From assembly GCF_000177675.1 (NCBI RefSeq), contig NZ_ADGX01000015.1, positions 1-64,000 on the forward strand: DNA of 64,000 nt. The letters run 5' to 3'. Positions 1 through 13,210 of this stretch are shown here, one piece after another; the stretch's first letter is position 1, and every line of letters starts with the position of its first letter. Source of the DNA: Parafrankia sp. EUN1f (GTDB lineage: Bacteria; Actinomycetota; Actinomycetes; Frankiales; Frankiaceae). Under the pieces are notes generated by a model. It was not told the origin of the DNA and ran no database searches. It saw only the letters and a list, made by a program, of their open reading frames with translations. A program made the translations under genes and the position numbers.

Positions 1-1110
1 CCGCCTCATCCGGCCCTCGGCCGCGCTCTCTCCGGGCGAGACGTGCAGAAGCGAGGTCATGAACTCGGAGAACTCCTGCCCATGCCACGCACGCCGCAGT
101 GAGCGGCTCTGGTAGCCGTCGAGCAGATCGCGACGCCCCGAGCGATACCAGTGGTCCAGTCCCTCGGCGAGCAGGCGGGCGTCCGCGACGGCCATGTTCA
201 GCCCCTTCGCGGCGCTCGGCGGCACGATGTGCGCGGCGTCGCCCAGGAGGAACAGGGTCCGATACTGCATGTGCTCCTCCACGTGGGCGCGCAGCCCGAC
301 CAGCACCCGTTCCGTGATGGTCCCGGTCGGCAGCTTGCCCGTTCCGCCGGTAAGGCGTAGATCCAGCTCGTGCCAGATCTCCTCGTCGCTGCGCAGGTGG
401 ATCGGCTCGTCCGGTGGTACCTGGAGGTAGAGGCGGCTCACATCCGGCGAGCGCATGCTCTGCAGGGCGAAGCCCCGATCGGTCACGGCATAGATCAGTT
501 CCGGGGAGAGCGGCGGGGCCTGGGCGAGGACACCGAGCCAGGCGAAGGGGTAGGCCCACTGGTGTGCGCTACGCCGCTGCGCGGGGATCGCCGCCCGGGA
601 TACCCCGTGATGGCCGTCGCAGCCGGCAAGGAACTCGCAGGAGATCTCGACCGGGGTTCCGCCCAGGGTGCACTGGACGAGGGAGCCGTCGACGCCCACC
701 TGGCAGATCCGCACATCGGTGACACCGAAGTGGATCTCGCCCTGGGACTCCAGCCGGGCTCCGATCAGGTCCTTGACGATCTCCTGCTGGCCATAGACGA
801 CCATCGGGACGCCGGTGAGCTCGGAGAACGCGAGGCGGAAGGCCGCGCCATCATGGCGAAGCTCCATTCCGTCATGCACCATGCCCTGCCGGTCCAGGCG
901 GTGCGCTACACCGGCCGCTCGGAAAGCCTCGACGGTGGACCATTCAAGAAGGCCGGCCCGCACACGCTTCTCAACGTGTTCCCGGCTGCGCCGCTCCAGA
1001 ACCACGGAGGCAATGCCGCACTGTTCAAGAAGGCGAGCAAGAAGCAGCCCGGCAGGACCGGCGCCAATTATGCAGACCTTGACGTTTCGCTTCTCAGGGT
1101 GATCGGGAAT
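1..1110 (-). CDS. PobA-like FAD aromatic hydroxylase (C-terminus beyond left edge)
   Basis: FAD-dependent hydroxylase of the 4-hydroxybenzoate 3-monooxygenase type, which uses NAD(P)H and O2 to hydroxylate ortho to a para-substituent. The protein opens with VKVCIIGAGPAGLLLARLL (dinucleotide fold). Further in it has WAYPFAWLG and PLSPELIY, matching the PobA substrate-site segments, and LLGDAAHIVPPSAAKGLN, the second FAD motif. About 370 residues are present; the family is near 394, so about 25 C-terminal residues lie outside the window. No ATG, GTG or TTG lies close before the fold. An ATT at 1110-1108 sits 6 nt after AGGAG; GTG codons further upstream (about 1254 and 1308) are alternatives. 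It lies downstream of the lyase gene on the same strand, so in this cluster the substrate could be 4-aminobenzoate rather than 4-hydroxybenzoate. The family is sure; substrate and start are not. Confidence 0.85.
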   Translation of the reverse strand, partial: MPDHPEKRNVKVCIIGAGPAGLLLARLLEQCGIASVVLERRSREHVEKRVRAGLLEWSTVEAFRAAGVAHRLDRQGMVHDGMELRHDGAAFRLAFSELTGVPMVVYGQQEIVKDLIGARLESQGEIHFGVTDVRICQVGVDGSLVQCTLGGTPVEISCEFLAGCDGHHGVSRAAIPAQRRSAHQWAYPFAWLGVLAQAPPLSPELIYAVTDRGFALQSMRSPDVSRLYLQVPPDEPIHLRSDEEIWHELDLRLTGGTGKLPTGTITERVLVGLRAHVEEHMQYRTLFLLGDAAHIVPPSAAKGLNMAVADARLLAEGLDHWYRSGRRDLLDGYQSRSLRRAWHGQEFSEFMTSLLHVSPGESAAEGRMRR

Positions 1111-1349: not shown

Positions 1350-2321
1350 CTATCTTGATGGACCATTCGCGGCACTGCTCATTGGACCATCCGTCGGCCT
1401 TGCATCTCCTTTCCGTGTCGGGTCGCCGCACGGGTCCTGCACCCGGCTCGTTGGCAGGGCCTGTACCAGGCCGGTAAGCCATCGCTGCCATTGCTCGCTT
1501 CTGACGGCGGGACCGGCCTCGAGCGCGGTGCCGACCCAGGAGGTCACTGGCCGGATCCCGTGCAGCGCATTGAGCAGCCACACCTCCCGGCCGGCGAGCT
1601 CCTCGACGCGCCGGCGGCTCGGCCGGATCTCAAGGCCGATCCGGCGGGCTCTTTCGAGGACCAGGCCGATGGTTATCCCCGGCAATGCGCGAAAACGGAG
1701 GTCGGGAACGCAGAGAGCGTCGCCCTCCCACCAGCAGATGCTGCTGGTGGCCGCCTCGACGATCAGGCCGCTCCTGGTGGCCAGCAGAGCCTCGTCCGCC
1801 CCCTGGTCGCCGGCTGCTCGCCGCAGGTCGGCCAGCCGGTCGAGGTCCGGGCCCTTGACCCGCGGCCGGGTGCGCGGATCAGGGACGGGCGCGCCCCATA
1901 CCCGCACCCCGGTGCCGAGCGGCGGTGCCGGGCGGATACGGACCCGCAGCCGGCGGTGTCCTGCCAGGTCCACCAGTTCGATCCGCGGGAACCAACTGCC
2001 CCCGCGAGGGATCTGCGTGATGGCAGCGGTCCAGAAGAAGGCGATGTCCTCGTCCGCCTCGGCGGTGCCCCGACGACTGGCCCGGCAGGCGGCGAGGAAC
2101 CTCTCCCGGTGGCGGTCCAGGGTTCGGGCTCGCCCCTCCGAGACCAGCCAGGAGTCCGCGGCGAGCAGCTTGGTGCCAGCCTCCTCGGTGCCTCGGCGCA
2201 GGCCGGAGGCCGACCACAGGTACAGGCCCTCCGGTGTCGTCGTGGCCGGCCGGCCGGCGCGAGGGTCGGCCTCGGACGCGCCGCGCGTCCACGGTGGGGC
2301 ATGGCCCGGGTCGCTGGTCAC
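1350..2321 (-). CDS. pabC: Class IV PLP enzyme, probable 4-amino-4-deoxychorismate lyase
   Basis: Fold-type IV PLP enzyme (323 aa) that probably cleaves aminodeoxychorismate into p-aminobenzoate and pyruvate. The PLP-binding Lys is most likely K156 in RVKGPDL. It is followed by GADEALLATRSGLIVEAATSSI (about residues 174-195), the usual PLP-phosphate-loop pattern with Glu189, and by LPGITIGLVLE. Length is slightly above the family norm (about 270-300), with a short N-terminal extension and a basic tail. The GTG start follows the TGA stop of the upstream monooxygenase without a gap (TGAGTG), so the two are translationally coupled. The facing operon begins with aminodeoxychorismate synthase, which supports lyase activity over branched-chain aminotransferase activity. 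An alternative is a D-amino-acid or branched-chain aminotransferase. Confidence 0.8.
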   Translation of the reverse strand: MTSDPGHAPPWTRGASEADPRAGRPATTTPEGLYLWSASGLRRGTEEAGTKLLAADSWLVSEGRARTLDRHRERFLAACRASRRGTAEADEDIAFFWTAAITQIPRGGSWFPRIELVDLAGHRRLRVRIRPAPPLGTGVRVWGAPVPDPRTRPRVKGPDLDRLADLRRAAGDQGADEALLATRSGLIVEAATSSICWWEGDALCVPDLRFRALPGITIGLVLERARRIGLEIRPSRRRVEELAGREVWLLNALHGIRPVTSWVGTALEAGPAVRSEQWQRWLTGLVQALPTSRVQDPCGDPTRKGDARPTDGPMSSAANGPSR

Positions 2322-3560
2322 TCAGTACCTGCCTACCGGTGCGGTGTCGGTGGCCAGACGGCGTGGACCGTACACCGCCCGTTCCAGCCACGTGCCACAG
2401 GACGGTATCCATGGCGCCAGTGCCGCGGCGGTCCGCTGCCGGGTCCGCAGGATCGGCCGGGTCGCCTGCAGGTGGACGAGCGCGGTGCCGGCGGCCTGGC
2501 TGTTGCGCAGCGCGGCGGCCCGCCTGGTCGTCGCGAACCGGCGCACCGCCTCGTCTGCCTGGCCGGCCGACCTCGCGGCGAGGGCCAGGACGACGGCCCG
2601 GGCTGCCTCGTCTCCGTCCGCGAAACCGCTGTTCATGCCGCGGGCGCCGAGCGGTGGGAACAGGTGGGCCGCCTCGCCCACGAGCAGGATCCGGCCATGT
2701 GGGTCGACGAACGAGTCGGCCACGACCCGCTGGAACCGGTAGGTCGCCGTCCACAGCACCGACTCGAGATATCTGCCGTCGACCACTTTCGGTAGCCAGC
2801 GCGCGAGCGCCTCCGGCGAGTCGAAGTCCTCGGCCCGGTCGGAACCACGGCACTGCAGGTCGAGCTGGAAGCCGTTCGGGAACGGCACGTGCATCAGATG
2901 CCGGCCATCGGTCCCGGGATGCTCGTAGTGGAAGGTCCGCTCGGGCGGCAACGCATCGGGCCCGGTGTCCGCGATGTCCACCGTGACATGGAAGCCCTCG
3001 GATCTCTCGCCCCGCATACCGACGCCGGCGAGCCGCCGGATCGTGGACCGGGGGCCGTCCGCACCGATGAGATAGCGGGCGGTGAAAGACCGGCCACTCT
3101 CGACCTCGACCGTGACCTCGTCGTCGGCGGCGTCGAGCCGGACCACGGGCGAGCCCCACCGGATGTCGACGCCAGCCCGTGCGCACGCCGCGCGAAGAAA
3201 GCCCTCGGTGTCCACCTGACGAAGGCTGGTGTAGGGGACAGGACGACCGGCCCGAGGCCGCGGGTACTGCTTGGCGTATACCTCCCGGCCCCGGAACAGC
3301 GTGCGCCGCGCGGTCCAGAGGATGCCGTGCTCGCTGAGGTCGGCAGCGAGGCGGGGGTCGGCCAGGCCAAGCAACCGCAGCGATTCACCGTGCACATACA
3401 GCGCGCGGCTGCCCGGCCGGGTGGCGTCCGCCTCCCGAGCTTCGAGCAGGGTCACCGGCGCACCAAACGAACGTAAAGCCAGGGCGGTCGCCAGGCCGAC
3501 CGGCCCAGCACCGACGACGAGCACCGGGTACTGCTCTTTCTTCCGGGCAGGGGTCGTCAT
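2322..3560 (-). CDS. FAD-dependent aromatic monooxygenase
   Basis: Single-component flavoprotein monooxygenase (412 aa) of the phenol hydroxylase/TfdB/polyketide hydroxylase class. Visible motifs are VLVVGAGPVGLATALAL near the N-terminus (FAD ADP moiety), GADGPRSTIRR near residue 170 (DG motif), and LVGEAAHLFPPLGARGMNSGFADG near 290 (second FAD motif, with GE in place of the usual GD). There is no signal peptide, so it is cytosolic. It is the first gene of the left-facing operon and ends on the start of the lyase gene. In context it is likely to hydroxylate an aminobenzoate-derived intermediate. The actual substrate cannot be read from sequence. Confidence 0.85.
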   Translation of the reverse strand: MTTPARKKEQYPVLVVGAGPVGLATALALRSFGAPVTLLEAREADATRPGSRALYVHGESLRLLGLADPRLAADLSEHGILWTARRTLFRGREVYAKQYPRPRAGRPVPYTSLRQVDTEGFLRAACARAGVDIRWGSPVVRLDAADDEVTVEVESGRSFTARYLIGADGPRSTIRRLAGVGMRGERSEGFHVTVDIADTGPDALPPERTFHYEHPGTDGRHLMHVPFPNGFQLDLQCRGSDRAEDFDSPEALARWLPKVVDGRYLESVLWTATYRFQRVVADSFVDPHGRILLVGEAAHLFPPLGARGMNSGFADGDEAARAVVLALAARSAGQADEAVRRFATTRRAAALRNSQAAGTALVHLQATRPILRTRQRTAAALAPWIPSCGTWLERAVYGPRRLATDTAPVGRY

Positions 3561-4166: not shown

Positions 4167-6350
4167 GTGCGAACCCTGCTGATCGACAACTTCGATTCGT
4201 ACACATATAACCTGTTCCAGCTCGTCGCCGAGGTAAACGGAGTGGAGCCGGCGGTCATCACCAATGACACCTCGCTCGAGGAGCTCGGTCGGCTGGACGT
4301 CTACGACAATGTGATCATCTCGCCCGGTCCGGGGCGTCCGGATGTCGACCGGGATTTCGGGATCTCGGCACAGGTCATCGCGCAGGCCGAGGCGCCCGTG
4401 CTGGGGGTCTGCCTGGGCCACCAGGGCATCGGGGCGCACGAGGGAGCCCGGGTCCAGCCGGCGCCGAAACCAAGGCACGGATTTCTCAGTTCGGTCCGCC
4501 ATGACGGAACGGGGCTCTTCCGGAACATTCAGAGCACCTTTCTCGCGGTGCGTTATCACTCCCTGGCCCTCGCGGACCCGTTGCCCGCGGCCCTGCGCGC
4601 CGTCGCCTGGGCCGAGGACGATGTGATCATGGCTGTCGAGCACCGTACCCGGCCCCTGTGGGGCGTCCAGTTCCACCCGGAGTCGGTCGCGACAGAGCAC
4701 GGAAGACAGCTGTTGGCGAACTTTCGTGCCCTGACAGAGCAGCTCGCACGGCCGGGTCGAAGTGCTGGCGGGCGGGGAGCGGCCCTGCCGGCCGGCAGGG
4801 CCATGGTGCTTCCGCGGCGCCGTGAGGACGACGGGAGGGCACAGCCCGGTCCCGTGCCTGCGCTCCGGACCGGCCGGCTTCATCGGCTGAACGTCCGCAC
4901 GCTGCCGGGTGCGGCCGACGCGCCGGCGGCATTCCGTGAACTGTACGGGGAGTCGCCCGACGCGTTCTGGCTCGACAGCTCCTATCGCCCCGAAGGGCTC
5001 GCCAGATTCTCCTTCCTGGGCGACGCCAGTGGCCCGCTGGGCGAAGTGGTGTCCTACCAGGTAGGTGATCCGCACGTTTCGGTGTGTTCTCGGGGCGAGG
5101 TCAGCCTGGTACCCGGAACAATCTTTGACTATCTCGAGGAGGCGTTGGCCAAGCGGCAGATCGAAGGCCCGGACCTGCCCTTCGATCTGCGGTGCGGATA
5201 TGTCGGCTACTTCGGTTATGAACTCAAGGCGGATCTCGGGGCGACGAACGCTCATCGTTCGGCCGCGCCCGACGCGGCCTGGATGTTCGTCGACCGGATG
5301 ATTGCCATCGACCACGAGGAGAAAACCACCTACCTGCTGGCTCTGGAGGCGGACGGCGCGTCGGACTGGATCGAGTCGACCGCCGCGCGCCTGGCGCTGC
5401 TCAGTGATTCCGAGGAGGTTCGTCCCACTTCGGCGGCCGGGACGTCGAATCCGCCGCCTCTCGACCAGGCGCTGGTCAATGGTTACCTGAGCCGTGACCG
5501 AGCCCGATACCTTGCTGACATCGATCATTGTCAGGCCAAGCTCGTGGCTGGGGAGAGCTACGAGATCTGCCTTACCAACATGGTGCACCTGCCGGCCGTG
5601 GACGACGGGCTGGTGGCTTATCTCGCACTTCGGCGATGGAACCCGGCGCCCTATGGGGCCTATTTCCGGCTCGCCGGGGTCGAGGTCGCCAGCTCCTCAC
5701 CGGAGAGATTTCTGCGTATCGACAGAAATCGCTGGGTGGAAAGCAAGCCGATCAAGGGAACGGCGCCGCGGGGAAAGGACGCCGCGCAGGACATCCAGCT
5801 GTGTCACGAACTGCGGACGAGCCCCAAGACGCGAGCCGAGAACCTGATGATTGTCGACCTCCTGCGCAACGACCTCGGCCGGGTCTGCGAGATCGGCAGC
5901 GTGCACGTGCCGCGCCTCATGGCGACCGAGACCTATGCGACCGTGCATCAGCTGGTATCGACCGTGCGCGGACGGCTGCGAACCGACCGAAGTGTGATCG
6001 ACTGTGTGCGGGCCTGTTTCCCGGGGGGCTCCATGACCGGTGCCCCGAAGCTGCGGACAATGGAGATCATCGACACGCTCGAAACCGACGCCCGTGGTAT
6101 CTACTCAGGGGCGCTGGGCTTTCTTGGCTGCGACGGAACAGCGGACCTCAGCATCGTCATCCGCACCGCGGTTCTGGTGGACGACGTCTGGCACGTCGGC
6201 AGTGGGGGCGCGATCGTCCTGGACTCCGATCCCGGCGAGGAACTGGACGAGATGCTGCTCAAGGCGGCGACGACAGTCCGCGCGGTGGCCAGCCCGGCGA
6301 CCGGCCGGGCCGTCTCCGGGCAGCGCGCGTTCTCCGGAGCCCCGCGATGA
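4167..6350 (+). CDS. pabAB: Fused aminodeoxychorismate synthase (PabA-PabB)
   Basis: Bifunctional enzyme (727 aa) converting chorismate and glutamine to 4-amino-4-deoxychorismate. Residues 1-190 form the glutamine amidotransferase: nucleophile Cys82 in LGVCLGHQG and the His170/Glu172 pair in FHPES. Residues about 240-715 form the chorismate-binding PabB part, with the PIKGT motif at 528-532; Lys530 marks PABA synthases, whereas anthranilate synthases have PIAGT. The start is GTG 10 nt from AGGGG. The stop overlaps the next start in ATGA, so it is coupled to the ligase gene. Fused PabAB enzymes of this type are common in actinomycete secondary metabolism. With the lyase at 1350-2321 it supplies p-aminobenzoate, here probably for a dedicated product rather than folate. 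Confidence 0.93.
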   Translation: MRTLLIDNFDSYTYNLFQLVAEVNGVEPAVITNDTSLEELGRLDVYDNVIISPGPGRPDVDRDFGISAQVIAQAEAPVLGVCLGHQGIGAHEGARVQPAPKPRHGFLSSVRHDGTGLFRNIQSTFLAVRYHSLALADPLPAALRAVAWAEDDVIMAVEHRTRPLWGVQFHPESVATEHGRQLLANFRALTEQLARPGRSAGGRGAALPAGRAMVLPRRREDDGRAQPGPVPALRTGRLHRLNVRTLPGAADAPAAFRELYGESPDAFWLDSSYRPEGLARFSFLGDASGPLGEVVSYQVGDPHVSVCSRGEVSLVPGTIFDYLEEALAKRQIEGPDLPFDLRCGYVGYFGYELKADLGATNAHRSAAPDAAWMFVDRMIAIDHEEKTTYLLALEADGASDWIESTAARLALLSDSEEVRPTSAAGTSNPPPLDQALVNGYLSRDRARYLADIDHCQAKLVAGESYEICLTNMVHLPAVDDGLVAYLALRRWNPAPYGAYFRLAGVEVASSSPERFLRIDRNRWVESKPIKGTAPRGKDAAQDIQLCHELRTSPKTRAENLMIVDLLRNDLGRVCEIGSVHVPRLMATETYATVHQLVSTVRGRLRTDRSVIDCVRACFPGGSMTGAPKLRTMEIIDTLETDARGIYSGALGFLGCDGTADLSIVIRTAVLVDDVWHVGSGGAIVLDSDPGEELDEMLLKAATTVRAVASPATGRAVSGQRAFSGAPR

Positions 6351-7951
6351 ACGGGCGGCCTCCCAGGAACCTGGCCGCGGAGTTGGCGGACCTGGCGCGG
6401 TCTCGGGGCTGGACGGACCGACCGGCCCTCCTGTTCGAGGACCAGGTGGTCACCTACGGGGAGTTACACGACCTGGCAGCGCGAGTCGGTCAGGTGCTGG
6501 TCCGGCATGGCGCCGGGCCCGGCCGCAGGGTGCTGATCGCGCTGTCCGACGGCCCCGCCTGGGTGGCGGCCTTCCTCGGAACCGTGCGGTGCGGAGCGAC
6601 CGCCGTCCCGGTCAACCCGTTGTTGACCGCGGACGACCACGGATTCATGGCCGACGACTGCGCCGCGCGGATCGTCGTCGCGGACGAGGAGATCTGCTCC
6701 CGGTTCACGGCCACCGTGGTGCGCAGTGGTGATCAGCTGCTGGCCGAAGCACACCAGGCCGAGGCCGGGCCGGTCGTGCATACCGACGACCCGCTCTATC
6801 TCACCTACACGTCCGGTACGACGGGATCCCCGAAAGGGGCGATGTTCCGGCAGGGGAACCCCCGCTTCTACCATCAGAACATCGGCCAGGCGCTGCTGCG
6901 CTCCGGGCCGACCGATGTGACGCTGTCCGTGTCGAAGCTCTATTTCGGCTATGGCCTCTGCAACTCCCTGGTCTTCCCGCTGTATTCGGGTGGGTCGGTC
7001 GTGCTCCTGCGAGAACGTCCCGGCCCGGAGGCCGTCGAGGGGCTGGTCAGCCGACACGGGGTGACCCTGCTGTACGCCGTCCCGTCGGCGTTCGCGGGCC
7101 TGGGGCGTTCGGCGGAACCTGCCTCGTTCGGCTCGGTCCGGGCGGCGGTGTCCGCCGGCGAACGGCTGAGCCTCGAACTCGGTGGGCGTACGTCCGACCT
7201 GCTGGGCGCCCCGGTCCTGGAGCAGCTCGGGCAGACGGAGGTGGGGTGCGCCTTCGTGGCGAACGGCGTCGAAGCCAACGTTCCGGGCACGGTCGGGCGT
7301 GCGGTGCCCGGCTTCACGGTTCAGGTGCGTGATCCCGAGGGCCGGCCGTGCCCCGACGGAACCGTGGGTGAGCTGTGGGTCACCGGGCCGACCCTCATGA
7401 TCGGCTACCTCAACCGGCCGGAACAGACCGCGACGGCCCTGCGCGGAGGCTGGCTCGCGACCAACGACCGCGGGATGCGTAACCCGGACGGCACCTTCGT
7501 TCATCTCGGGCGGCTTGACGATCTCGAGATGGTCGGCGGGATCACGGTGTCACCTCTGGAGATCGAGGGGGTTCTCGGCGCACATCCGCTTGTTTCCGAG
7601 GTCGCCGTGGCCGCGGTTCCCGACGAGACCGGCGCGACCCGGCTGCGGGCCTATGTGGTGCCGCGCCGGCCGGACGAGTCCGGCAGCCGGCTCGAACAGG
7701 ATCTGGTGGGTTTTGCGCGTGAACGCCTCGCGCCGTTCAAGGTTCCCCGGACCGTCCATCTCGTGCCCGCCCTCCCACGCACCGCCTCGGGAAAGCTCCG
7801 CCGTTTCCAGCTGCGCAGTGGCCTCTTCGCCGCCGAGAACCCGCCCGCCAGCCCGGGCTCCAGCCCGTCCGGCCGGCCAGGAGTCCCGCATCCCACCGCG
7901 ACGCCCGCCTCGACAACGTGGCTCGGTCCAGATCCGGCCGGCCTCAGCTGA
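6347..7951 (+). CDS. Benzoate-CoA ligase family adenylating enzyme
   Basis: ANL-superfamily acid ligase (534 aa) that activates an aryl acid as acyl-AMP and then probably as a CoA thioester. Visible are LTYTSGTTGSPKGAM (P-loop), SKLYFGYGLCNSL (characteristic of benzoate-CoA ligases), LGQTEVGCAF in the A5 position, the A8 hinge region FVHLGRLDDLEMVGG, and the C-terminal PRTASGKLRRF with the catalytic Lys. The ATG overlaps the pabAB stop by 4 bp. The C-terminal 35 residues are rich in Pro, Ser and Thr and look disordered. Position directly behind PABA synthase suggests p-aminobenzoate or its hydroxylated form as substrate; this is inference. Confidence 0.85.
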   Translation: MNGRPPRNLAAELADLARSRGWTDRPALLFEDQVVTYGELHDLAARVGQVLVRHGAGPGRRVLIALSDGPAWVAAFLGTVRCGATAVPVNPLLTADDHGFMADDCAARIVVADEEICSRFTATVVRSGDQLLAEAHQAEAGPVVHTDDPLYLTYTSGTTGSPKGAMFRQGNPRFYHQNIGQALLRSGPTDVTLSVSKLYFGYGLCNSLVFPLYSGGSVVLLRERPGPEAVEGLVSRHGVTLLYAVPSAFAGLGRSAEPASFGSVRAAVSAGERLSLELGGRTSDLLGAPVLEQLGQTEVGCAFVANGVEANVPGTVGRAVPGFTVQVRDPEGRPCPDGTVGELWVTGPTLMIGYLNRPEQTATALRGGWLATNDRGMRNPDGTFVHLGRLDDLEMVGGITVSPLEIEGVLGAHPLVSEVAVAAVPDETGATRLRAYVVPRRPDESGSRLEQDLVGFARERLAPFKVPRTVHLVPALPRTASGKLRRFQLRSGLFAAENPPASPGSSPSGRPGVPHPTATPASTTWLGPDPAGLS

Positions 7952-7976: not shown

Positions 7977-9638
7977 GTGTCCGCCGATCTCAACACAGGA
8001 GTGCGTGCTTTCTACATAGGCCGCATGTTCGATCAGGCCGCTGACGCACATCCCGCTGTTTCCGTGAGTCTCGACCAGCCCCTGGGCTGCGCGCCAGACG
8101 CTCCGCAGGCGACTGTCGGCGATCTCGCCACCCTGGTCGCGGACCTGGCTGCCCGCCTCTGGGCGATCGGCATCCGGCCCGCCGAGCGGGTGGCGATCTA
8201 CAAACAGAACAACTTCGACATCGCGCTCCTCGCCTGCGCGGCGGCCCGGATCGGCGCCGTCCCCGCCCTGCTCGCGCCTGCTCTGCCCGGAGACATCGCG
8301 ACCGAGCTGATCCGTCGGCTGGACCGGCCGTGGTTGCTGACCGACACGGAGACGCTCGCCGGCCCGCTCGCGGCGCAGGAGCTCGTGGTCCGGGGCAGCG
8401 TCCTGGTCGACGACGGCGCCATCGTCGACGACGGGGCCGTCCTCGACGATGGGGCCGTCCTTGACGACGGGGCTGTCCGCAACGGGGCCGTCGACCACCC
8501 GCTTCGCGATCAGAGCGGCGCGCCGGCGCCGGTGGTCCGCCTGGGCGGGTACGCGGGCTCGCCGCCGCGGGATCCGGTGCTGCTGCACCCGAGGGAGCCG
8601 GCGCTCATCACGCACAGTTCGGGAACCACCGGTATTCCCAAGCTGGTGGTGCACTGTGCCGGGGCGCTCTGGCATCGGCTGATTCCGCAGCTGGCGATCG
8701 CCTCGCCGGTCAGGAAACGCCTCAAGGTGGCTTTCTGTCTGACCTTCGTGCATTCTCGCTTCTACCACGCTCTCGGTGTCTTCCTGCGTTACGGAAATCC
8801 GCTGGTGATCGCCTCGGACTCGGCTCCCGAGACCGTCGGGCCACTACTCGTCCGGACCAGGCCTGGATTCATCGAAACCCATCCCAACGCCTTCATCGAC
8901 TGGGAGGATCTGGTCGACGCGCCCGGCCAGCCTCTGTCGAGCATCAAATACTATGCCGCTACGTTCGACGCGATTCATCCGCGGACCGTCGCCAAGCTCC
9001 TGTCCGCCTCGAAACACCGGCGGCCGCTGATGCTCGCGTTCTACGGGCAGTCCGAGACGGGACCTGTGGCCGGCCGATGGTTCACCCGTCGCGGAGCCGC
9101 CCAGGCGGACGGGCGCTGCGTCGGGCTCACACTGCCCGGCTTCATCAGGCTGAGGGTCGTCGGCGCGGACGGGCGGCGGGTCCGGCCGGGTGAGGCGGGC
9201 CACCTCGAGGTGCGCAGCCGCGGCCGCGCGCTGACCTACCTCGGCGAGGACGAGCGTTTCGCGAGCCAGCTCCGCGACGGCTGGTGGCGGCTCGGCGACA
9301 TGGGCTACCGAAGCCGGCGAGGTCTGCTCTACCTGATCGACCGCGAGGTAGACCAGATCGCGTCGATGCCCAGCAACCTGCAGGCCGAGGACATTCTCAT
9401 GGGTCGCCTCACCGAGCTGCGGGAGATCGTGATCGTCGCCGGACCCGAGGGCGAGCCCGTCCCGGTCGTGTGCACGCGTGATGACGGACCGCTGGACCGG
9501 GCCCGTTGGGCGCGGGCGATCGACGGGCTCCCGGACATGGCCGAGCCCGTGGAGCTGCCCTTCCACCAGCTTCCACGAACGTCGACCGCGAAGATCCAGC
9601 GCTCGGTCCTCAGTCGGCTGGTCGCCGAACGGAAATGA
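7977..9638 (+). CDS. Second, divergent AMP-dependent acid ligase
   Basis: ANL-superfamily ligase (553 aa), only distantly like its neighbour. It has ITHSSGTTGIPKLVVH (P-loop), FYGQSETGP (A5), LIDREVDQIASMPSNLQ (A8 region) and RTSTAKIQRSVL at the C-terminus, where the family Lys is kept but the usual preceding Gly is replaced by Ala. Between the N-terminal lobe and the P-loop it has an insertion of tandem six-residue repeats (DDGAVL, residues about 145-168). The chosen start is GTG at 7977, 11 nt after AGGAG; GTG at 8001 is possible. It could charge a second carboxylic acid, form an amide, or load a carrier; no carrier protein is visible here. Confidence 0.78.
   Translation: MSADLNTGVRAFYIGRMFDQAADAHPAVSVSLDQPLGCAPDAPQATVGDLATLVADLAARLWAIGIRPAERVAIYKQNNFDIALLACAAARIGAVPALLAPALPGDIATELIRRLDRPWLLTDTETLAGPLAAQELVVRGSVLVDDGAIVDDGAVLDDGAVLDDGAVRNGAVDHPLRDQSGAPAPVVRLGGYAGSPPRDPVLLHPREPALITHSSGTTGIPKLVVHCAGALWHRLIPQLAIASPVRKRLKVAFCLTFVHSRFYHALGVFLRYGNPLVIASDSAPETVGPLLVRTRPGFIETHPNAFIDWEDLVDAPGQPLSSIKYYAATFDAIHPRTVAKLLSASKHRRPLMLAFYGQSETGPVAGRWFTRRGAAQADGRCVGLTLPGFIRLRVVGADGRRVRPGEAGHLEVRSRGRALTYLGEDERFASQLRDGWWRLGDMGYRSRRGLLYLIDREVDQIASMPSNLQAEDILMGRLTELREIVIVAGPEGEPVPVVCTRDDGPLDRARWARAIDGLPDMAEPVELPFHQLPRTSTAKIQRSVLSRLVAERK
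8409..8495 (+). repeat. In-frame 18-bp tandem repeat (DDGAVL)
   Basis: Four full copies and one partial copy of an 18-bp unit (GACGACGGGGCCGTCCTC type) lie inside the second ligase gene and keep frame. They encode an acidic low-complexity insertion ahead of the ATP-binding P-loop. Confidence 0.8.
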
Positions 9639-9669: not shown

Positions 9670-10683
9670 GTGACGACAGACTCCACCAGTGCCCGTACCC
9701 TGATCGAGCTGGCAACCGGGTACTGGCGAACCCAGGCGATACACGCGGCTGCGGCACTCGGCATCGCGGACCGGCTGGCCGGCGGGCCTCGGAACGCGGC
9801 CGACCTGGCAGCCGAACTTGCCCTCCAGGTCGATCCGGTAACTCGTCTCCTACGTTTCCTCGTCGACCTCGACGTGTTGACATACGATTCCGCGGGTGGC
9901 TACTCCCTGACCCCGGTCGGAGAGCTGCTGCGATCGGACACAGCGGATTCGCTGAACGCATTGACAATTCTCTACGGCAGCGAGTTCTACGCTGCCTGGG
10001 GTGAGCTGCTGAACGCGCTCACCACCGGCATCTCAGGCTTCGAGAAGGTTTTTGGCAGGAGCCTTTTCGACTACCTTCCCGCGCATTCGGAGACGGCGTC
10101 TCGCTACGACGCCACGATGGCCGGTGGTGCCTCCTTCTTCGCACGTGTACCGGCGGCCCACGCGTTTCCCGCGCAGACCACGGTGGTGGACGTCGCGGGC
10201 GGTACCGGCGGTCTGCTCGCCGAGATCCTGCGGTCGGACGAGTCGTTGCGGGGAGTTCTCTACGACGCGCAGCACGTGGTGGGCAGCGCGGCCACCGAGC
10301 GGAACCTCCAGCCCTTCGGTAATCGCTGTCAGACCGTCTCCGGTGACTTCTTCGCGCGGGCGCCGAAGGGGGGAGACGCCTACGTTCTCTCCCGGATCCT
10401 CCATGGCTTCGACGACGCGGACTGCCGGCGGATCCTCGGGCGCATACACGAGGCGGCGCGGCCGGGGGCCACCCTGCTGGTGGTGGAGCGCCTGCTGCCC
10501 CCCGCCGGCGCCGCGCCGTCGCTTGCCGCCGGGTTCGACCTGCACATGCTCGCGGTCATGGGCCACGGACGAGAGCGCTCCCGGGAAAGCTATGCCGAGC
10601 TGCTGGCCGAGGAGGGATTCGCGCTCGATGACGCCCGGCCGCTCGAGCTGGACGTCCACCTGCTTGTCGCCCGCCGTCTCTGA
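9670..10683 (+). CDS. SAM-dependent O-methyltransferase
   Basis: Class I methyltransferase (337 aa) of the plant-COMT/hydroxyneurosporene type. The N-terminal winged-helix dimerisation domain covers about 10-100 ([21 protein letters not shown]). SAM motif I is [12 protein letters not shown] near 175. A later motif, [21 protein letters not shown], carries the His seen in this family's catalytic region. The start is GTG, 5 nt after a GGAG at 9661-9664. It follows the second ligase by 31 bp and is presumably co-transcribed. It most likely methylates a phenolic hydroxyl introduced by one of the flavin monooxygenases. N- or carboxyl-methylation cannot be excluded. Confidence 0.85.
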
Positions 10684-10765: not shown

Positions 10766-11572
10766 ATGTCACGGTACTCGTGGGGTAAACAGCACTCCAG
10801 CATCGACAGCATACGGGAGATGATCAATCAGAGTCGTCTCGAGGTCACGGCGCACTCGCTTTACCAGCGTATTCGCACTATTCGTGACGTCCAGATCTTC
10901 ATGGAGCACCACGTCTACGCGGTCTGGGACTTCATGTCGTTGCTGACGTCGCTGCAGCGTTCCCTTACCTGCATCGACCTTCCCTGGGTTCCGAGCGGGC
11001 CCGTCTCGAGCCGCCGGCTGATCAACGACATCGTCCTCGTGGAGGAGAGTGACGAGCTCGACGCCGGTTACATAAGTCACTTCGAGCTCTACCGGATCGG
11101 AATGATCGAGGCCGGTGCGCGGACCGACGGGATCGATCGCCTGCTGGAGGCGGTCAGGGCAGGGGTTCCGATCGCCGAGGCCGCGGTGCTCGCCGAGGTG
11201 CCGGCACCCGCCTCGAGCTTCATGGAGGAGACCTGGAGCATCATCACAGAGACGCCGGTCCACTGTCAGGCCGCGGCGTTCGCCTTCGGGCGCGAGGACC
11301 TGATTCCGGACATGTTCGCCCAGGTGATCTCGAACAACGAGATCCGCCTGCGTACCTTTCACGACTATCTCGCCCGGCACATCGAGGTCGACGGCGAGCA
11401 GCACACGCCGATGGCGATGCAGATGCTGGCGGATCTCTGCGGTGAGGACGACGCCCGCTGGTCGGAGTGCGTCGCCGTGACGAGACGCGCCCTGCGGGCA
11501 CGCCTGCAGCTGTGGGACGGCATCGCCGCCGCCCTTGACGTCGATGAGAGGGAGCGGTCGGTCACGATCTGA
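10766..11572 (+). CDS. DUF3050 family protein (heme-oxygenase-like fold)
   Basis: 268-residue all-helical cytosolic protein matching the DUF3050 family, which is assigned to the heme-oxygenase-like fold. Conserved blocks are [20 protein letters not shown] (residues 46-65), LVEESDE (91-97), ISHFELY (103-109), [16 protein letters not shown] (169-184) and [10 protein letters not shown] (204-213). The last block places H205, D209 and H213 in an HxxxDxxxH pattern. With E47/H49 and E94 or E107 this resembles the ligand set of heme-oxygenase-like diiron oxidases (HxxxDxxH in that group). No activity is established for the family as far as I know. It is the last gene of the PABA operon, 82 bp after the methyltransferase, so an oxidative step on an amino-aryl intermediate is plausible. 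Confidence 0.85.
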
Positions 11573-11780: not shown

Positions 11781-13210
11781 ATGGGGGCTCCGGTGGCGAA
11801 TCGTGCGCCGAACGTGGTCGTGATCCTGCTCGACGACCTGGGGTTCGCGCAGTTCGGGAGCTACGGTTCGGGGTTCTCCACGCCGAACGTCGACCGGCTG
11901 GCCGCCGGGGGACTGCGGTACAACCGGTTCCACGCCACGGCACTGTGCTCGCCCACCCGCGCCTCGCTGCTCACCGGGCGCAACCACCACGCGGTGGGCA
12001 TGGGCTTCCTCGCGGACCTCGCGACCAGGGCTCCCGGTTACACCGCCCGCATCCCGCGCTCGGCCGCCACGCTTCCCCTGCTGCTGCGCGGAGCCGGCTA
12101 CAACACGATGGCGGTGGGGAAGTGGCACCTCGTCCCCGGCGGTGAGCGCAGCTCGGCCGGGCCGTACGACCGGTGGCCGCTCGGGCTGGGTTTCGAGCGC
12201 TACTACGGCTTCCTGCGCGGCGACGCCAACCACTGGGCGCCCGAACTGGTCCGCGACAACTCCTACGTCGAGCCGCCGGCCGGGCCCTCCGACGGCTACC
12301 ACCTGACCGAGGACCTCGCTGACGAGGCGATCCGGATGGTGGTCAACCAGCAGCAGTCGGCGCCGGGCAAGCCGTTCTTCCTCTACTTCGCCCCCGGCGC
12401 GATGCACGCTCCGCATCATGTCGAGCGTTCCTGGGCGGACGCCTACGCCGGCGCCTTCGATCACGGCTGGGACCGCTGGCGCGAGGAGGTCTTCGCCCGG
12501 CAGCTCGCCAGCGGCGTCGTCCCCGCGGGGACGACGCTGACCGAACGCCCGTCCTGGGTGCGGGCCTGGGCTGACCTGCCGGCCGACGAGCGCCGCGTCT
12601 TCGCCCGGATGCACGAGGTCTACGCCGGTTTCCTGAGCCATACCGACGCGCAGATCGGCCGGGTCGTCGACGCGCTGGAGAAGCTCGGCGTCCTGGACAA
12701 CACGCTGCTGTTCGTGATGTCCGACAACGGCGCGAGCGCCGAGGGCGGGGTGTCGGGAACCGCCAACGAGCACAGCTTCACCCACCGGGTGGTCGACGAT
12801 CTGGCCGACAACCTGGGCCGTCTCGACGACTGGGGCGGGCAGCGCCACTACCCGCACTACGCCTGGGGCTGGGCCTGGGCCGGCAACACGCCGTTCCGGC
12901 TGTGGAAGCGCTACACCTGGCTCGGTGGCACCCGGGTGCCGATGATCGTCCACTGGCCGGCCGGGATCACGCCGGGCACCGGTGGCGGGGCTGGCGACGG
13001 TGGTGCCGACACCGGTGTGCGCGGGCAGTTCGCGTCTGGCAGCACGGCGGCGCGTCGATCCACCTCGGGCAGGACCGCGGGCTGCCGGTGAGCGACGGCT
13101 ACCGCCCGCCGTTCCCGTGGACGGGCACCCTGCACCAGGTGCGCATCGACGCCGGCGCCCAACTGCCCCCGGAACGGGATCTCCTGCGCATCGCGCTACA
13201 GGTCGAGTAA
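11781..13210 (+). pseudogene. Arylsulfatase with internal deletion and frameshift
   Basis: The open frame from 11781 (ATG; GTG at 11793 is an alternative) to 13091 encodes a type I sulfatase N-domain: metal ligands in VVVILLDDLG, the formylglycine signature CSPTRASLLTGR, the KWHL lysine/histidine and FVMSDNG. After GVRGQFA (about 13030) the frame runs into unrelated Ser/Arg-rich residues and stops. In another frame, 13040-13210 encodes the sulfatase C-terminus, with GGASIHLGQDRGLP and YRPPFPWTGTLHQV. About 250-300 residues between these parts are absent compared with full actinobacterial sulfatases of about 760-790 aa. A deletion with a frameshift is the simplest reading. The product would lack the C-terminal domain and is probably inactive. 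Confidence 0.8.

What the first reader, a model, noticed from the sequence alone, without database searches (positions are those of the whole stretch)
10766..11572. DUF3050 protein with a possible metal-oxidase ligand set in a PABA operon
Residues H205, D209 and H213 in [10 protein letters not shown], with E47/H49 and E94 or E107 in helix-like segments, resemble the ligands of heme-oxygenase-like diiron oxidases (including CADD, SznF, UndA types). Those enzymes carry out N-oxygenation, C-C cleavage or PABA-related chemistry. A DUF3050 member beside PABA synthase suggests an oxidative role for a family with no assigned function known to me.
Basis: partly seen in the sequence, partly recalled or inferred. 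Interest (0 to 1): 0.7.

Follow-up and report, generated by a model that had tools for sequence, protein, structure and literature searches.

The report
HamA-type metal oxidase in PABA cluster
The gene encodes a member of a little-studied family of iron- or manganese-dependent oxidases, and it belongs to a conserved, apparently undescribed set of genes in soil actinobacteria that makes and modifies p-aminobenzoate; the gene company it keeps suggests, but does not prove, that it oxidises nitrogen on the way to nitrogen-nitrogen bonds.

Summary
Window 10766-11572 (+) is an intact 268-aa DUF3050 protein. It is the last of five tightly spaced genes, pabAB-ANL1-ANL2-O-methyltransferase-DUF3050, beside a divergent FAD monooxygenase and a PabC-like lyase. 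The metal-oxidase idea is right but not new: DUF3050 was assigned to the CADD/heme-oxygenase-like fold in 2015, and the HamA crystal structure (9VWB, released November 2025) is the model's best match. The conserved set is E93/E94, H105, E177, H205, D209, H213; E47 is not conserved, and H105 and E177 were missed.

New here: the same six genes recur, rearranged, in Parafrankia, Actinoplanes and Streptomyces. In a sample of Streptomyces species, 22 of 24 with DUF3050 carry it beside pabAB; the two exceptions have lost metal ligands. In nine genomes with other DUF3050 neighbourhoods, the ligase scoring best against the AvaA6 diazotase model is the one near DUF3050. ANL2's nearest solved relatives by sequence include Tri17 and CmaA6, which form N-N bonds. 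No DUF3050 locus carries a CreE homologue. HamA acts near the N-N step of valdiazen synthesis. I therefore favour a nitrogen-oxidising role in a PABA-derived pathway. A CADD-type PABA synthase is excluded: the only lysine is K8.

The parts
10766..11572 (+). DUF3050 (PF11251) heme-oxygenase-like dimetal oxidase candidate, HamA type, 268 aa; ligand set E93/E94, H105, E177, H205, D209, H213
9670..10683 (+). class I SAM O-methyltransferase (Methyltransf_2 + Dimerisation); among the PABA-type loci found only in the window and its close relative G004
7977..9638 (+). ANL2: divergent adenylate-forming enzyme; nearest PDB relatives by sequence are Tri17 (8TF7/9BQ0), a FadD entry (9XB8) and CmaA6 diazotase (8ZTZ)
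6347..7951 (+). ANL1: benzoate-CoA ligase-like / aryl-AMP ligase
4167..6350 (+). fused aminodeoxychorismate synthase PabA-PabB (GATase at the N-terminus)
   Evidence: 8hx6, 4-amino-4-deoxychorismate synthase, E 4.8e-196
2322..3560 (-). FAD-dependent aromatic monooxygenase (FAD_binding_3), divergent from the operon
1350..2321 (-). class IV aminotransferase-fold protein, PabC (ADC lyase)-like
1..1005 (-). second FAD monooxygenase, cut by the contig start (97% to L200:4010-5092 of G004)

Best explanation
[quoted passage not shown] It is a dedicated enzyme of a conserved actinobacterial cluster that makes PABA (PabAB + PabC-like) and then tailors it (FAD monooxygenase, aryl-acid ligase ANL1, ANL2, and an O-methyltransferase in Parafrankia). 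Most likely it activates O2 at the metal pair to oxidise nitrogen: either the PABA-derived aryl amine itself or a small nitrogen source, giving a nitroso- or nitrite-level species that the diazotase-like ligase ANL2 couples to the aryl amine (N-N or diazo chemistry). Shown by computation: family, fold, ligand conservation, membership of the PABA cluster, and the DUF3050-ANL association. Inferred: metal content, O2 use, nitrogen as the site of oxidation, and coupling with ANL2.
For: HDO: PF11251 E 2.6e-92. AF2 model (pLDDT 82) best matches HamA 9VWB (Z 30.6), then UndA 22.0, N-oxygenase HrmI 21.9, CADD 20.9. The ligand set is conserved in 125 members, and the two natural variants that lost H105, E177 and H205 (with D209E) or H213 are also the two Streptomyces copies without a pabAB neighbour. 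PABA dedication: the six genes pabC-like, FADmo, pabAB, ANL1, ANL2 and DUF3050 recur at about 47-64% identity in Actinoplanes and in the Streptomyces loci with enough flank, with rearranged order; 22 of 24 DUF3050-bearing Streptomyces species have pabAB beside it; the PABA-linked DUF3050s sit together on the tree (SH-aLRT 89). Nitrogen/N-N: in G001-G005, G113, G205, G232 and G241 the ANL with the top AvaA6-diazotase score is within about 6.5 kb of DUF3050; ANL2's top PDB hit by sequence is Tri17 and its model's top Foldseek hit is CmaA6; DUF3050-linked ANLs and AvaA6 fall on one side of a 100% branch; no CreE homologue and one weak CreD-like match (29% identity) in the DUF3050 loci, and no CreE in G000, G003, G113 or G205. 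HamA literature: hamA is not on the list of genes dispensable for the valdiazen signal (PMC5878181), is not needed for the hydroxylamine intermediates, and is bypassed by feeding the N-N-containing dihydrosydnone N-oxide (PMC11659414).
Against: ANL2 is a long branch, only 87.6 bits against the AvaA6 model (cut-off 975), and its generic acyl-CoA-ligase score is higher (112). By VIA-align the CmaA6 match is tied with ordinary acyl-CoA ligases (Z 38.5), and the alignment used for that model contained AvaA6-like rows. In G000 itself ANL2 is not the top AvaA6 hit as scored by the genome search, and in G268 the ANL2 homologue is second among that genome's listed hits. The DUF3050-ANL pair may be partly inherited as one unit, so the nine genomes are few independent events. 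Some DUF3050 loci have no ANL close by (73 of 96 do). An mgoB (DUF3050) insertion mutant still made mangotoxin at a reduced level, though the authors doubt that the gene was fully inactivated (PMC3298696). The model segment with E93/E94 has low confidence (pLDDT 53-59).
Confidence: 0.5

Rival explanations
1. AurF analogue: the enzyme N-oxygenates PABA (or hydroxylated PABA) to hydroxylamino-, nitroso- or nitrobenzoate, which ANL1 then activates, as AurF and an acyl ligase do in aureothin; no N-N bond is involved.
For: Cluster makes PABA and has a benzoate-CoA-ligase-like enzyme; close structural match to the N-oxygenase HrmI (Z 21.9); HDOs such as SznF and HrmI are N-oxygenases (PMC13108848).
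Against: In ham/pvf/mgo clusters DUF3050 coexists with an AurF-type N-oxygenase that does the N-hydroxylation, so the family's job there seems to differ (PMC11659414, PMC3298696). Does not explain the recurrent diazotase-like ANL.
Confidence: 0.25
2. Carbon oxidase: the enzyme performs desaturation, C-C cleavage or decarboxylation on an ANL-activated aryl acid, like UndA, BesC or MboA.
For: UndA is the second-best PDB match (Z 22.0); HDO chemistry is diverse (PMC13108848, PMC13185094); ANLs near DUF3050 could simply load the substrate.
Against: Substrates available in the PABA cluster are aromatic amines without an obvious alkyl chain; HamA evidence points to nitrogen chemistry (PMC11659414).
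Confidence: 0.2
3. CADD-like self-sacrificing PABA synthase that supplements PABA.
For: Fold match to CADD (Z 20.9) and a PABA operon.
Against: Needs an active-site lysine as amine donor (PMC11965152); the protein's only lysine is K8. Tyr33 is F or H in five of 125 members. PabAB and a PabC-like gene are already present.
Confidence: 0.02
4. Non-catalytic or accessory protein in the pathway.
For: Two Streptomyces homologues have lost ligands; model confidence around E93/E94 is low.
Against: Complete ligand set in the window protein and near-total conservation elsewhere.
Confidence: 0.03

Closest known systems
HamA (PDB 9VWB), with MgoB and PvfA in the homologous operons; DUF3050, diazeniumdiolate (fragin/valdiazen, leudiazen) operons
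   Same: Same Pfam family (9VWB: phmmer E 3.8e-51, 36% identity in the structural alignment, Z 30.6) and same ligand set (B. cenocepacia row L127).
   Different: ham/mgo/pvf load an amino acid (L-valine in ham) on an NRPS and have an AurF-like N-oxygenase; the window cluster has PABA synthase and stand-alone ANLs and no NRPS or AurF was found in it.
UndA, HrmI, CADD, FlcD, PolF, BesC (HDO superfamily)
   Same: Same fold (Z 17-22) and 3-His/3-carboxylate pattern; H-x3-D-x3-H as in CADD.
   Different: about 10-16% identity; substrates and reactions differ; no lysine for CADD chemistry.
ava / cma clusters (AvaA6/CmaA6 diazotase with CreE/CreD nitrite pathway)
   Same: ANL2 and the other DUF3050-linked ANLs are on the AvaA6 side of the ANL tree; the Micromonospora DUF3050 loci share diazotase-like ANL (45% identity), loading ANL (up to 43%) and ketosynthase (45%) with ava.
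   Different: DUF3050 loci lack CreE, CreD (bar one weak match) and AvaH/AvaI; the window cluster has no PKS.
Aureothin-type PABA N-oxygenation (AurF)
   Same: PABA synthase + N-oxidation + aryl ligase logic (from general knowledge of aureothin).
   Different: AurF is ferritin-like, not heme-oxygenase-like (PMC13108848); no PKS in the window cluster.

Membership tests
PF11251 DUF3050 | match to the curated profile above its cut-off | tested here: met
   309.2 bits against cut-off 22.2, positions 2-233 of 233
Heme-oxygenase-like dimetal oxidases (HDO) | seven-helix heme-oxygenase-like fold | tested here: met
   AF2 model against HamA Z 30.6, UndA 22.0, HrmI 21.9, CADD 20.9
Heme-oxygenase-like dimetal oxidases (HDO) | 3-His/3-carboxylate ligand residues conserved in sequence | tested here: met
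   E93/E94, H105, E177, H205, D209, H213 at 98-100% in 125 rows; same assignment in PMC4520260
Heme-oxygenase-like dimetal oxidases (HDO) | ligands converge on one pocket | tested here: inconclusive
   no coordinates readable; fold match to metal-bound HDOs supports it, but the E93/E94 segment has pLDDT 53-59
Heme-oxygenase-like dimetal oxidases (HDO) | binds two metals and activates O2 | not testable with these tools
   needs protein
SznF-type 3H/4C N-oxygenases | seventh, carboxylate ligand from an auxiliary helix | tested here: inconclusive
   D55 is 98% conserved and is lost together with core ligands in L167/L168; its position relative to the metals was not measured
CADD/PabS self-sacrificing PABA synthase | active-site lysine amine donor | tested here: not met
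   only lysine is K8, N-terminal; requirement from PMC11965152
ATP-dependent diazotase (AvaA6/CmaA6/Tri17) for ANL2 | score above the NF058622 cut-off | tested here: not met
   87.6 bits against 975; so ANL2 is diazotase-like at most, not an AvaA6 equivalog
ATP-dependent diazotase (AvaA6/CmaA6/Tri17) for ANL2 | nearest characterised relatives are N-N forming ANLs | tested here: inconclusive
   Tri17 107 bits, 9XB8 (FadD) 93, CmaA6 86, 4-chlorobenzoate ligase 69; structure Z tied with ordinary ligases
PABA biosynthesis (PabAB) | ADC synthase rather than anthranilate synthase | tested here: met
   TIGR00553 pabB 338 bits above cut-off 328; best PDB hit ADC synthase 8hx6 E 4.8e-196

The most novel reading that the evidence does not exclude
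DUF3050 proteins are the missing nitrogen-oxidising enzymes of N-N bond pathways: an O2-dependent dimetal enzyme that supplies a nitrite- or nitroso-level nitrogen to a partner (a diazotase-like ANL in actinobacteria, a hydroxylamine-bearing NRPS product in ham/pvf/mgo), in place of the CreE/CreD aspartate-nitrosuccinate route. In the window this would turn PABA into an aryl diazo or N-nitroso product.
Probability: 0.25. Interest if true: 0.85.

Novelty: new variant of a known kind. Interest (0 to 1): 0.58.

Why it matters
Two open questions become testable on one small enzyme. First, the review PMC11705231 lists only putative enzymes for the N-N bond of fragin/valdiazen, with HamA (DUF3050) a candidate. 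Second, 72 of 134 ava-like diazotase clusters lack CreE/CreD and their nitrous acid source is unknown (PMC10777205); whether those particular clusters hold DUF3050 was not checked, but the ava-like Micromonospora loci found here have DUF3050 and no CreE/CreD. Separately, the PABA-DUF3050 cluster occurs in about 7% of the Streptomyces species sampled, and I found no described product for it.

Tried and rejected
CADD-type PABA synthase: rejected, no lysine available. Ligand role of E47: rejected, 72% conserved. A CreE/CreD nitrite pathway next to the cluster: not found; G000 has CreD-like lyases but no CreE at E<=1e-20. The genome-level association of AvaA6 with DUF3050 in Streptomyces (7 of 13 against 2 of 137, Fisher p 2e-7) was set aside as evidence because the loci are far apart and clade effects were not controlled. 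The ANL2 model comparison did not discriminate diazotases from ordinary ligases. G113's second AvaA6-like ANL (L144) was tried as a CreDE control but no CreDE-like gene was apparent from its ORF starts; those ORFs were not family-searched. Literature searches for a described product of the cluster and for a HamA activity paper found none in the held library.

Full report
What is there. Window 10766-11572 (+) encodes an intact 268-aa DUF3050 protein. It is the last of five co-directional genes with overlaps or gaps of at most 82 bp: fused PabA-PabB (4167-6350), ANL1 (6347-7951), ANL2 (7977-9638), O-methyltransferase (9670-10683), DUF3050. Divergent from these lie an FAD aromatic monooxygenase (2322-3560) and a PabC-like lyase (1350-2321). 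The first 1005 bases are part of a second FAD monooxygenase cut by the contig end.

Is it a metal oxidase? The AF2 model (mean pLDDT 82) matches HamA 9VWB best (Z 30.6, rmsd 2.3 A over 244 residues), well above the next HDOs: UndA 22.0, HrmI 21.9, CADD 20.9. In 125 DUF3050 sequences E93, E94, H49 and D96 are invariant, and H105, E177, H205, D209, H213 and D55 are 98-99% conserved. The pattern E-H-E-H-x3-D-x3-H is that of HDOs, and the equivalent residues were proposed in 2015 (PMC4520260). Two Streptomyces homologues (L167, L168) lost H105, E177, D55 and either H205 (with D209E) or H213 together, which suggests that these residues work as a set; the two are sister sequences, so this is few events. 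Convergence in space was not measured.

Is it really tied to PABA? The six genes pabC-like, FAD monooxygenase, pabAB, ANL1, ANL2 and DUF3050 occur together in Parafrankia (G004), Actinoplanes and the Streptomyces loci with enough flank, but in a different arrangement: in Streptomyces DUF3050 is divergent from pabAB and the other four genes follow pabAB (order). An AhpD-like CMD gene joins the set in Actinoplanes and Streptomyces; none was found beside it in Parafrankia G004. Among 296 Streptomyces species 24 have DUF3050, and 22 of these have pabAB beside it; the two without are the ligand-loss homologues. On the DUF3050 tree the PABA-linked members form a near-clade (SH-aLRT 89, with a few other rows inside). 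A conserved set in different orders argues for a shared pathway rather than leftover synteny.

What might it oxidise? DUF3050 elsewhere keeps other company: an ava-like type II PKS cluster in Micromonospora and relatives (55 loci labelled KS), an ANL plus CMD-type protein in Parafrankia and Frankia relatives, and the ham/mgo/pvf operons. In nine genomes (G001-G005, G113, G205, G232, G241) the ANL scoring highest against the AvaA6 diazotase model is the one within about 6.5 kb of DUF3050, out of tens of candidates per genome. ANL2 of the window is a more distant case: its nearest solved relative by sequence is Tri17 (107 bits), followed by 9XB8 and CmaA6, with 4-chlorobenzoate ligase at 69 bits (identities of the entries). 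On an ANL tree ANL2 joins the side with AvaA6 (100% support, but a long branch, midpoint root and few background rows). It scores far below the AvaA6 equivalog cut-off, and structure comparison does not separate it from ordinary ligases.

Nitrite supply. Known AvaA6-type diazotase clusters use CreE/CreD (PMC10777205). No DUF3050 locus held here has a CreE homologue, and only L118 has a weak CreD-like match (29% identity). Whole-genome searches found no CreE at E<=1e-20 in G000, G003, G113 and G205; G004 and G268 do have one elsewhere. Kawai et al. report that 72 of 134 ava-like clusters lack CreE/CreD homologues and ask where the nitrous acid comes from (PMC10777205). HamA genetics fit a role near N-N formation: only hamB, hamF and hamG are reported as dispensable for the valdiazen signal (PMC5878181); HamA is not needed for hydroxylamine intermediates, and a hamA mutant fed the N-N-containing dihydrosydnone N-oxide makes both products (PMC11659414). 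That places HamA between the two, by inference from separate studies; the 2018 paper itself assigned HamA to valine N-hydroxylation.

Best reading. A HamA-type dimetal oxidase dedicated to a PABA tailoring pathway (confident), acting on nitrogen (moderate), perhaps feeding ANL2 with a nitroso- or nitrite-level nitrogen (speculative). AurF-like N-oxygenation of PABA and carbon oxidation remain live rivals. The CADD-type PABA synthase is excluded by the lack of any lysine but K8.

Novelty. The fold and metal assignment are known. The conserved PABA-DUF3050 cluster and the DUF3050-diazotase-like ligase pairing were not found in the papers searched; absence from that library is not proof that they are undescribed.

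Noticed in passing
window 11781-13207: Sulfatase gene after DUF3050 lacks the residues 419-695 seen in the intact 753-aa G004 copy and changes frame near 13034: an internal deletion (pseudogene) or an assembly fault.
   Followed up: partly
L167, L168 (Streptomyces G698, G710): DUF3050 homologues (40% identity) that have lost H105, E177, D55 and either H205 (with D209E) or H213, and that lack the pabAB neighbour: apparent natural pseudoenzymes.
   Followed up: partly
L027, L029 and most of L043-L122 (Micromonospora, Salinispora, Catenulispora and others): An ava-like type II PKS cluster with DUF3050, VOC and PhyH dioxygenase-like genes and a transketolase-like gene but no CreE/CreD or AvaH/AvaI; widespread in Micromonospora.
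   Followed up: partly
L028 (G113 C1:4603000-4622900): A second, divergent DUF3050 (43% identity) next to an ANL2 homologue (44%), a type III PKS, a DegT aminotransferase, a cupin and a polyprenyl synthase-like gene.
   Followed up: no
L200:4010-7994 (G004): In Parafrankia G004 the PABA cluster continues with a second FAD monooxygenase, a MocR/GntR-type regulator and an MFS exporter (names for the last two from ORF reading, not family search).
   Followed up: partly
L126:7980-8783 (Mesorhizobium plasmid): A DUF3050 gene beside radical SAM, alanine racemase-like, TldD-related and transketolase genes, with no ANL annotated: a further unexplored DUF3050 context.
   Followed up: no
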